Shown here: positions 2,709-13,221 of the stretch, in pieces | Layout of the letters: each line of letters begins with the position of its first letter | Numbering within the stretch: position 1 is the stretch's first letter | DNA from: an uncultured Eisenbergiella sp. | GTDB lineage: Bacteria > Bacillota > Clostridia > Lachnospirales > Lachnospiraceae | Reading direction: 5' to 3' | Assembly: GCA_947627215.1 (NCBI GenBank) | Contig: CANQVD010000003.1 | Span: 62,001 to 126,000 of the forward strand | DNA length: 64,000 bases | Position numbers and translations under genes: made by a program | The notes under the pieces: generated by a model | Told to the model about the DNA's origin: nothing | Database searches by the model: none | The model's input: only the letters and a program-made list of their open reading frames with translations

Positions 2709-2823
2709 TTTTTTTTACGATAGGCGGAGACGCCTGTGTGGATTGAAAGATGTAGTGGAAAGTGTTTGCGCAGTGTTTTCTCTGTGCACCAGCGGGAGAA
2801 CGGCGCTGCAGTATCATTAACCG

Positions 2824-3729
2824 TTACCGGATGCAGAAGCCGAAGCTGACGCCGCTGGCGCCGGTCGCGCCGCTGCCGACGTCGGCATAGCCGCGGCTGT
2901 TGACGTTGCAGAAGTTGCTGCTGTTCATCGCACGCGGAGACGCCCCCAACCACCAGTCGCTGCGGCGCAGTGCGTTCTTCAGAACCGTCAGGTCATTGGG
3001 GTCAGTCAACTGCTGATAATACGCATACTGTTTCCCTTCCCCTGCGTAGCTTCTCAGGTAACCGTACTGTTTTGTGCCAGTGCCTGTGTTTTTCCCTGCC
3101 TCCGTTTGCGTCCCGTCCGCGTTATAGCCGTATTGGCCGAACAGTTCCACCTCTCGGAACAGGAACAGGTTTTCCGTAGTTTCCTTTATAGTGGAAGATT
3201 TATTACCGGCGCTCGCCTTCTTCTTTACCGGGACGATCACGGCTTTCAAGTCTTCCGGAAGACTCTGCTGGTAGACGGAATCCAGATAGTTCCTCATTAC
3301 CGTTGCCCCTTTGGAGTTGTTGGCTGTCGATTCCATCCTGACATATTCTCCTGTGATTCCTGCCTTTGATGCTTTTGTGCCAGTCGTTTTGACGCTGCCT
3401 TCACAGTTCGCAACAAAATTGCCGTCCACAACGTTAGGCGCACACATGCCGAAGGTGGCCGTATAACCGCCAGAGCCGTCCGCCGGGGTGTCATGGTCGA
3501 AGCCGAGGATGTTCACATAAATGTATTGATCACTGATTGCGGTATTTCCATTGCTGTCGTATGCTACACTTGTGGTCCCGGCACCCAGATGCACTTCCTT
3601 CGCGCAGCCGTTCAAGAGACACTCTCTTCCGCGGCGCGCCCGGGCCTGCCCCTGACGCGCCGCCCCCTGAGGCCTGTGAGTATATGAAGGTTTTTTGGTC
3701 GCATATGGAATACTCACTATGCCCCTCAT
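2824..3729 (-). pseudogene. truncated second DGR target-like ORF (duplicated 3' cassette carrying VR2)
   Basis: Amino acids after LNGCAKEV are identical to the C-terminus of the 6925-13221 protein except in the last ~45 residues; no signal peptide or upstream domains. Confidence 0.75.
2840..2970 (-). repeat. DGR variable repeat VR2
   Basis: 131-nt ungapped alignment to TR (5939-6069); differences almost all at TR adenines. Confidence 0.88.
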
Positions 3730-12900: not shown

Positions 12901-13221
12901 GCCGTTTAAAGTGATGACCAGATCCCCCGGCTGATACCCTTCCGCCCGTACCTTCTTAGCGGAGTAGGATACCACCAGGGTGGCCGTCTTCCCGGTATTG
13001 GCTGTCTCATCCCACTGATAGGTGGAACCGCTCTGTTCCTTCCAGGAGATACCGAAGCTCACGCCTGTGGGGTTGAGCGTTTCCTTTGTGCTGATCTCAT
13101 ATGGGGAGCCGCCTGACATCCCAGCCGCGAGCGCCGTCTCCGGCAGACACTGGAACGCGAGCAGAACCGCCAGGGCCCCTGCAAGGAAATGTTTGATCTT
13201 TTTTCCAAGTTTCTTCATCAT
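6925..13221 (-). CDS. giant surface protein with Cna_B/SpaA-like repeats, Ig-like bacterial repeats and C-terminal DGR-diversified C-type-lectin-like domain
   Basis: N-terminal signal/TM segment; repeated GxYxLxExxAPxGYE Cna_B motifs; C-terminus LRRSDWWWEASPGAIYSYNFCYV...GVSFGFCIR. Confidence 0.9.
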   Translation of the reverse strand: MMKKLGKKIKHFLAGALAVLLAFQCLPETALAAGMSGGSPYEISTKETLNPTGVSFGISWKEQSGSTYQWDETANTGKTATLVVSYSAKKVRAEGYQPGDLVITLNGIGNANRSRTMEALVGADKAGTATKTRDWTYTWDRVKDTYTLTNNRAIEGGSVFSGYFELVYSFEARETVHGFSQDVDATMYLPYGDGTATVTSNTLTWKDTTAKDTFSLDITAEKFSGTDGLAQYLPEGTSTGDYYFVKYTLTPDIDFFARGLKAPADIRVQLAPDAVFLRASKDVTSPQTADGWLQFSNTGFDPDPFWWKLHDYELEVWAAYPRTAYQTASTTIKAQLCGTFNDESAESLLAQDEMTINVSNFDFFDTPGVIYDIWKSGTGHTNYSVVNDGCFDKDYSYAGHWIGIRGYLNGATMSSGEMASFVLHTLIHGAPRFNGAGATWNLEYVDDWLYIMRDDGSYRKLAQDEYEFTSITMPSTSQLLNDNGIPIQGNTYEYIVYASQGMEYNDRTEVAHGKLGDMKYIPLPAGTNLYTVKINGLAEGIEDMPIQCSVKFHIKDKETKADLKDNLEYGIVANTYFMRLYDDANNLINNSFTADHYTDKSMAADDMRTYGSYLDREKAELHIHSVYSDFDNEVILSSFTNTGKGFNTVARNITSFQAAEGDMLTGIDSVLLFPEGLKLPADVTFPEAIWDHVTVSGLGLSSDELAKHCTITFDENYKGSGRTLVKFHFDFSDAPVSPVSDLVTAVDAWLPVENYSVYGGSYQVYGVSVPSGLTVRPDLHKQDNGSWIASTSLGSDINGNSRTDELISWDSDYETIAYAASSQMALNKWVKTTYSRMYVQDVEKDESGAAAQGQAPYEDLFGQYSYMLKVTNGYSITKDLVLTDILETGPNKEWQGTLVSVDTSYAKSLGFNPVVTYAKTASPSTGDWTTNIAGAKAVKIDFGSGELKEGQELFVVINMKAPADAQLVEKLTENRYSASFTMIDSSTHEETKQDDLTSNLVQVKLSKPRYSLILEKKDPVDNSVLSGASFELLDGEDVVASGTTNYSGRLILRDIPAGEYTLHESAAPLGYETMADKKVVVSAGSTNVMYYTVEDERSKGRVTLTKHNDLDYSIVVPGAVYTLYNAADDSIVKDDLTTGANGQIYVDELEWGSYYFKEKTSPAGYELSEKKIPFTVTRFNVSSDLTVTAVDPQMPASIKLVKYEKLENGTETKTPLTGAFFTLYRDYGTDLGGLKELGTYGTDETGEFNISDLVYGDYVLKELKSPNGYEFVDDIPVTLSPDNREVTVTAYDERMPGTLQVIKTDPEGHVLEGVSFALYPLEESEDTIPAAELATRKPAASGQTDANGTWEETDLAWGRYVLIETKALPGYILDSTQHPVEIGPESLTVRVEVENGRTHGSVTLVKTDESGAHLLADAEYSLYQNDGTLIQDGLVTDTKGEIHVEDLDWGTYYFKEDKAPAGYGLSDELVRFSINADNVATDLQVDAVDKIKTRELTLTKKIKKDDINYSNGTPTFMFTVTGTDINGEEHTWNRMVSFPEGVAKADGEGYLSQTVTFSDIPAGTYTASEEFVSRYNFNSITDVSANGTVKGETVEFDLKTYDDGHATYTNDKGEWQHLSDSGSITNLVKATRKLVGLKVTYDGPATLESGTELTQYLTVEAYYDDGSSQVLTPDQYTLSTPVAPYQSGSYTVTVTYTEDGVIRKGNFTFDIDYRTGMHPKVVDLHLEAVPGNTLEYETGSAISPDGFTVTVTYDTGEKKTLAASEYSLNYTTAPTTDGTYQLKASYTEYGTTYYSNEVEITVVKPAVKHINEWSWDEIQAEVASGRAPVTFSECYTNGCAKEVHLGAGTTSVAYDSNGNTAISDQYIYVNILGFDHDTPADGSGGYTATFGMCAPNVVDGNFVANCEGSVKTTGTKASKAGITGEYVRMESTANNSKGATVMRNYLDSVYQQSLPEDLKAVIVPVKKKASAGNKSSTIKETTENLFLFREVELFGQYGYNADGTQTEAGKNTGTGTKQYGYLRSYAGEGKQYAYYQQLTDPNDLTVLKNALRRSDWWWEASPGAIYSYNFCYVSSSGYASSGDFASNTKGVSFGFCIR
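6941..7071 (-). repeat. DGR variable repeat VR1 (end of surface protein gene)
   Basis: 131-nt ungapped alignment to TR, adenine-biased differences. Confidence 0.92.

What the first reader, a model, noticed from the sequence alone, without database searches (positions are those of the whole stretch)
2821..13221. Complete DGR with two VRs, the second on a headless duplicated cassette
Seen directly: TR (5939-6069), VR1 (6941-7071) and VR2 (2840-2970) are each 131 nt and align without gaps. In my hand alignment, VR1 differs from TR at 16 TR-adenine positions and 2 non-adenine positions. VR2 differs at 21 adenine and 2 non-adenine positions. This is the adenine-specific mutagenesis signature of DGRs. 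VR2 sits on a 793-bp copy (2821-3613) of the surface protein 3' end (6922-7714). By eye the two copies are identical outside the VR. The copy is fused to an unrelated 5' end with no signal peptide. Inference: VR2 may be a silent donor that can recombine with VR1 through ~640 bp of shared flank, adding a gene-conversion layer to DGR mutagenesis.
Basis: partly seen in the sequence, partly recalled or inferred. Interest (0 to 1): 0.88.

Follow-up and report, generated by a model that had tools for sequence, protein, structure and literature searches.

The report
DGR with a stranded partial target copy
A mobile element in a gut-type bacterium carries a complete protein-mutating retroelement (DGR) plus a recent, beheaded copy of the mutated end of its target gene; the copy lacks the hairpin the system normally uses, so it is probably a stranded snapshot and not a second working target.

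Summary
TR (5939-6069), VR1 and VR2 align without gaps; over 131 nt VR1 differs from TR at 15 A + 2 other sites and VR2 at 20 A + 2. VR2 lies on a 793-bp copy (2821-3613) of the 3' end of the 2098-aa target gene, with 0 of 662 differences outside the VR. The core is an ordinary complete DGR: DUF6273 target, Avd-like ORF, TR, RT-2 spacer RNA, SQ-motif RT, MutS_I-like ORF.

The copy stops inside the hairpin at VR1's stop codon and excludes a second hairpin 42 nt downstream. In relatives, 58/65 primary, 4/4 in-locus secondary and 12/12 distal VRs keep a GC-rich hairpin there (7% in shuffles); VR2 has none. All 16 genuine secondary VRs sit on their own short genes with unrelated flanks. The copied segment is bounded by AACGG at both ends (chance about 0.6%) and sits in intergenic DNA, so the 'unrelated 5' end' is probably not a gene.

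Best reading: a recent microhomology-mediated partial duplication that froze an old VR1 and now flanks the DGR core as a direct repeat. Gene conversion is possible but unsupported: no VR1/VR2 conversion tract. The copy works as a clock: VR diverged at least 42-fold faster than its flank.

The parts
6925..13221 (-). Primary DGR target: 2098-aa surface-type protein with apparent signal peptide, five SpaA/Cna-B-like domains and C-terminal DUF6273 domain carrying VR1
   Evidence: ORF; Pfam PF17802 x5 and PF19789 (31.6 bits, cut-off 23.5)
6941..7071 (-). VR1: 15 adenine and 2 non-adenine differences from TR
6918..6935 (-). Hairpin 1 after VR1, GCATCCG(GTAA)CGGATGC, containing the stop codon; the 793-bp copy ends inside its 3' arm (at 6922)
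6878..6894 (-). Hairpin 2 after VR1, GCGCCC(CTAGT)GGGCGC, the type conserved after VRs of related DGRs; outside the copied segment
6097..6717 (-). Avd-like accessory ORF (206 aa)
   Evidence: similar ORFs between VR and TR in 15 of 80 related loci; no Pfam hit
5939..6069 (-). TR (template repeat)
5707..5925 (-). RT-2 RNA (RF03077), the spacer between TR and RT
   Evidence: 85.2 bits, gathering 40; same family just downstream of TR in 6 of 7 related loci
4487..5656 (-). DGR reverse transcriptase, 389 aa, with the SQ dipeptide (GLGQPASQ)
   Evidence: PF00078; motif; relatives sit beside TR/VR pairs
3839..4471 (-). Small MutS domain I-like protein (210 aa), last intact gene of the DGR cluster
   Evidence: PF01624 (27.7 bits, cut-off 20.6); one cluster at 98% identity in the protein search
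2821..3613 (-). 793-bp partial copy of the target 3' end (VR2 cassette), direct repeat of 6922-7714
   Evidence: 0/662 differences outside the VR
2840..2970 (-). VR2: 20 adenine and 2 non-adenine differences from TR; no hairpin within 110 nt downstream
3614..3729 (-). 38-codon in-frame extension upstream of the copy; judged to be intergenic sequence opened by chance
   Evidence: 60% GC, follows the MutS_I-like gene by about 110 nt; one search finds no database cluster identical to the 301-aa ORF
3608..3612 (-). AACGG at the 5' junction of the copy (7709-7713 in the donor)
2821..2825 (-). AACGG at the 3' junction of the copy (6922-6926 in the donor)

Best explanation
Shown: the locus is an ordinary complete DGR on a mobile-element-like contig, with VR1 in the full-length target gene and a 793-bp truncated copy of that gene's 3' end after the last gene of the cluster. 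Inferred: the copy arose recently by microhomology-mediated templated insertion (or circle integration) at AACGG, with donor AACGG...AACGG copied into a single AACGG in the intergenic DNA after the MutS_I-like gene. It took the VR and its 3' initiation site but not the downstream hairpin, so VR2 is most likely a frozen or nearly frozen snapshot of an earlier VR1, not expressed as a useful protein, while VR1 has been rewritten from TR since. Its likely effect is as a direct repeat: a crossover would delete avd-TR-RT-MutS_I and leave the full-length gene ending in VR2.
For: 0/662 flank differences against 25/131 in the VR. Non-A differences are also confined to the VR (4/91 against 0/662, Fisher P = 2e-4). 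Copy ends are AACGG at both sides, chance 0.6%. The copy ends inside hairpin 1 and before hairpin 2. Hairpin present after 58/65 primary, 4/4 in-locus secondary and 12/12 distal VRs of relatives, absent after VR2; shuffled 7%. Published: the hairpin is needed for efficient homing in BPP-1 (PMC3240598) and its deletion severely but not completely impairs editing in E. coli (PMC12875486). Genuine secondary VRs have their own ORFs and unrelated flanks. The VR2 ORF retrieves no identical cluster among 5.8 billion proteins although the RT of the same contig does.
Against: 7 of 65 primary VRs also lack a perfect hairpin within 80 nt (3 within 110 nt), so its absence alone gives only P of about 0.05-0.1. 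A weak 5-bp stem with a 9-nt loop (CAGCG/CGCTG) lies 27 nt after VR2. VR2 has more adenine changes than VR1, as an active target could. The reading frame is open from an ATG at 3729 with a purine-rich upstream stretch. The AACGG argument rests on one event. If the genome was assembled from short reads, the 643-bp exact repeat could not be phased, so VR1 and VR2 might be swapped.
Confidence: 0.7

Rival explanations
1. VR2 is a working second DGR target: a short protein without signal peptide, expressed at the end of the operon and diversified from the same TR.
For: Open 301-aa frame with ATG; VR and its 3' end are intact; VR2 carries 20 adenine changes; short secondary targets of 178-388 codons without the long head are common in relatives.
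Against: No hairpin downstream, unlike 16/16 secondary VRs in relatives; the body is an exact truncated copy missing the start of the domain; the head looks like GC-rich intergenic sequence; no matching protein cluster.
Confidence: 0.13
2. VR2 is a silent donor for gene conversion into VR1: the flanks are kept identical by recombination and VR variants are moved between the copies.
For: 643 bp of exact shared upstream sequence, long enough for RecA-type recombination; complete flank identity is what homogenisation would give.
Against: No shared-derived tract between VR1 and VR2 (P = 0.32); only 19 bp of homology on the 3' side; a single donor; a crossover deletes the DGR core; no such copy among 16 secondary VRs of relatives. 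Recent duplication explains the identity as well.
Confidence: 0.12
3. Assembly artefact: a VR variant of the same gene from the population was wrongly joined downstream of the DGR cluster.
For: Draft assembly of 108 contigs; exact repeat longer than short reads; VRs are expected to vary within a population.
Against: No N in the contig; both junctions are unique sequence with only 5-6 bp overlap, far below assembler overlaps; the ends show a microhomology pattern.
Confidence: 0.05

Closest known systems
Diversity-generating retroelements with DUF6273/C-lectin-type targets in Clostridia (e.g. loci L041, L047, L051)
   Same: Order target - Avd-like - TR - RT-2 spacer - RT, adenine-specific VRs, GC-rich hairpin after the VR
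   Different: Here the RT is only about 30-40% identical to theirs, a MutS_I-like gene follows the RT (no hit in their loci), and a headless exact copy of the VR end follows it
Multi-target DGRs with paralogous target genes (DiGReF survey, PMC3521204; Treponema denticola, PMC4891356)
   Same: More than one VR per TR, attributed to target duplication; T. denticola also has 'suspicious' truncated extra target genes
   Different: Their working paralogues are separate ORFs that diverge; here the copy is exact, truncated and without the hairpin
BPP-1 DGR of Bordetella phage (PMC3240598)
   Same: Needs a hairpin/cruciform just downstream of VR, near the stop codon
   Different: One VR only; loop there is GRNA, here GTAA and CTAGT
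Silent-cassette antigenic variation by gene conversion (general knowledge: Borrelia vlsE, Neisseria pilE/pilS)
   Same: A promoterless partial copy of a surface-protein end lies near the expressed gene
   Different: Single copy, no conversion tract seen, diversity already made by the DGR

Membership tests
DGR (whole locus) | TR/VR pair differing almost only at TR adenines | tested here: met
   15/17 and 20/22 differences at adenines; P = 1.8e-7 and 1.1e-10
DGR (whole locus) | DGR-type RT with SQ dipeptide next to TR | tested here: met
   PF00078 hit; GLGQPASQ; 65 of 80 loci with an RT relative hold TR/VR pairs
DGR (whole locus) | Avd-type accessory protein between VR and TR | tested here: inconclusive
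   Similar ORF in the same place in 15 relatives but no curated family hit and no solved-structure relative
DGR (whole locus) | Structured spacer RNA between TR and RT | tested here: met
   RT-2 RNA at 5707-5925, same place in 6/7 relatives
DGR (whole locus) | C-type-lectin-fold target carrying the VR | tested here: inconclusive
   DUF6273 hit; model pLDDT 74; Foldseek lists C-type lectins (CD23) but with no significant E-value
DGR (whole locus) | Hairpin/cruciform downstream of VR (VR1) | tested here: met
   Two perfect stems of 7 and 6 bp after VR1
Functional second DGR target (VR2) | Own hairpin downstream of VR | tested here: not met
   None within 110 nt; 16/16 secondary VRs of relatives have one
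Functional second DGR target (VR2) | Own complete target gene | tested here: not met
   Copy starts inside the domain and is joined to intergenic sequence; no matching protein cluster
Functional second DGR target (VR2) | Being rewritten from TR in living cells | not testable with these tools
   Needs reads or several isolates
Gene-conversion silent cassette | Conversion tracts between silent and expressed copies | tested here: not met
   5 shared derived sites, permutation P = 0.32, longest agreeing run 3 sites
Gene-conversion silent cassette | RecA-dependent transfer into the expressed gene | not testable with these tools
   Experiment needed

The most novel reading that the evidence does not exclude
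The headless copy is a kept archive: a hairpin-less VR that the RT cannot overwrite, from which a proven variant can be restored, or the gene locked by deleting the DGR core, through recombination with the full-length gene.
Probability: 0.08. Interest if true: 0.75.

Novelty: new member of a known kind. Interest (0 to 1): 0.33.

Why it matters
The duplicate is a natural clock: since it arose the VR has diverged by 19% while 662 flanking bases have not changed, indicating that the DGR has been active in this lineage in recent time. It is also a natural hairpin-deletion target lying beside an intact one, so the hairpin requirement known from BPP-1 could be tested in the wild by comparing VR1 and VR2 variability in reads. 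If the copy did recombine with the gene, it would be a way to store or lock DGR variants.

Tried and rejected
Looking for strain-level relatives: no DNA match in 13 genomes of the genus beyond own copies and short YolD-region hits, in plasmids or phages or viral contigs; plasmid RTs found by protein search were all below 60% identity. A first VR finder without edge trimming found nothing and was replaced. Folding-energy z-scores of the 70 nt after VRs did not separate VR1 from VR2; perfect-stem counts did. The fold of the VR domain gave no significant structural match. Circular closure of contig C3 was not found. Tandem duplication of the whole DGR was rejected because only the target end is duplicated.

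Full report
Observation. VR2 lies on a copy, 2821-3613, of 6922-7714 with no difference in the 662 bases outside the VR. The whole genome (108 contigs, 4.04 Mb) holds only these two copies and the TR.

Locus. On the minus strand the order is: a 188-aa BsaA/SipW-type protein, the 2098-aa target (SpaA repeats, DUF6273), an Avd-like ORF, TR, an RT-2 RNA, the RT with its SQ motif, a 210-aa MutS domain I-like protein, then the VR2 copy. The contig (164 kb) has no tRNA and carries VirD4/TraG, VirB4-type, ParA, ParB and actin-like partition genes, so it is plasmid- or ICE-like; circular closure was not seen. The RT has no close relative in the other 12 genomes of the genus, fitting horizontal spread, as surveys report for DGRs (PMC3521204).

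Comparison set. A scan of GTDB genomes with an RT alignment gave 80 loci. A finder for adenine-specific repeats recovered TR/VR pairs in 65 of them plus the window. Four loci have a second VR within 10 kb; a DUF6273 search of 49 of these genomes and a TR comparison of the distal matches added 12 distal VRs. All 16 secondary VRs lie in short ORFs of their own (178-388 codons) with flanks unrelated to the primary target. None is an exact truncated copy. So a second short target is common, but the arrangement in this window is not that.

Hairpin. In BPP-1 a hairpin/cruciform just after VR is needed for efficient homing (PMC3240598), and its removal severely but not fully blocks editing in a reconstituted system (PMC12875486). 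In the comparison set a perfect stem of at least 6 bp with a 3-7 nt loop lies within 80 nt of the VR end in 58/65 primary, 4/4 in-locus secondary and 12/12 distal VRs, against 6/65 after TRs and 7% in shuffles. VR1 has two: GCATCCG(GTAA)CGGATGC at the stop codon and GCGCCC(CTAGT)GGGCGC 42 nt downstream. The copy ends after three bases of the 3' arm of the first and excludes the second; VR2 has no such stem within 110 nt. A weaker 5-bp stem with a 9-nt loop exists after VR2. Because 7 of 65 primary VRs also fail the 80-nt test, the absence is suggestive and not proof. Folding-energy z-scores do not separate VR1 and VR2.

Origin of the copy. The donor segment begins with AACGG and ends with AACGG; the copy shows the same at its two junctions. 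Random segments of 400-1500 bp of this gene show such a shared end in 0.6% of trials. Removing the insert leaves ...CTCTTG-AACGG-TTAATG... in the intergenic stretch between the MutS_I-like gene and a convergent YolD-like gene. The simplest inference is microhomology-mediated templated insertion or integration of an excised circle. The 38 codons upstream are then intergenic sequence that happens to be open; a search with the 301-aa ORF found no identical protein cluster although the search with the RT found the RT of this contig.

Timing. VR1 and VR2 differ at 25/131 sites and the flank at 0/662, so the VR diverged at least 42 times faster (95% bound). Even non-adenine differences are confined to the VR (4/91 against 0/662, P = 2e-4). 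This indicates that retrohoming has occurred since the duplication, unless later conversion homogenised the flanks. It does not say which copy was rewritten; the hairpin argues for VR1.

Gene conversion. Shared derived bases between VR1 and VR2 are no more than expected (5 sites, P = 0.32) and the longest run of agreement is 3 adenine sites. Homology is 643 bp upstream but 19 bp downstream of VR. As direct repeats around avd-TR-RT-MutS_I, a crossover would delete the DGR core. Conversion remains possible and untested: no DNA of another strain could be reached, although a 98% identical MutS_I-like protein shows that related strains exist.

Limits. The assembly type is unknown; with short reads the assignment of VR1 and VR2 to the two flanks could be swapped, but both junctions are unlikely to be artefacts. 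The lectin-like fold of the VR domain could not be confirmed.

Verdict. A new member of a known kind (a multi-copy DGR target, with the extra copy truncated, as also recorded in Treponema denticola, PMC4891356). The special points are the clock and the natural loss of the hairpin.

Noticed in passing
5707-5925 (-): Rfam RT-2 RNA (RF03077) is exactly the TR-RT spacer here and in 6 of 7 related DGR loci, which suggests that this Rfam family is the DGR spacer RNA.
   Followed up: partly
13853-15238 (-): Complete IscB-type RNA-guided nuclease gene (NCBIfam guided_IscB, 305 bits) two genes upstream of the DGR target, with no Rfam hit for its guide RNA nearby.
   Followed up: no
3839-4471 (-): A 210-aa MutS domain I-like protein next to the RT with only one homologous cluster (98% identity) in the protein search and no hit in 80 related DGR loci; possible DGR accessory.
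   Followed up: partly
L121 14100-15800 (contig C3, outside the window): A CRISPR-like array with repeat ATTTCAATCCACCCGCTCTCACGAGCGGGACC on the same mobile-element-like contig.
   Followed up: no
L189, L203, L205, L206, L207, L208 (distal VR loci): In several related Lachnospiraceae one TR serves a distal, short DUF6273 protein of 241-282 codons with its own hairpin, a recurrent two-target arrangement.
   Followed up: partly
59133-61322 (+): Signal peptidase S26 fused to Ig-like domains, on the same element as the SipW-type exported proteins (13233-13799, 17379-18062) beside the DGR target.
   Followed up: no
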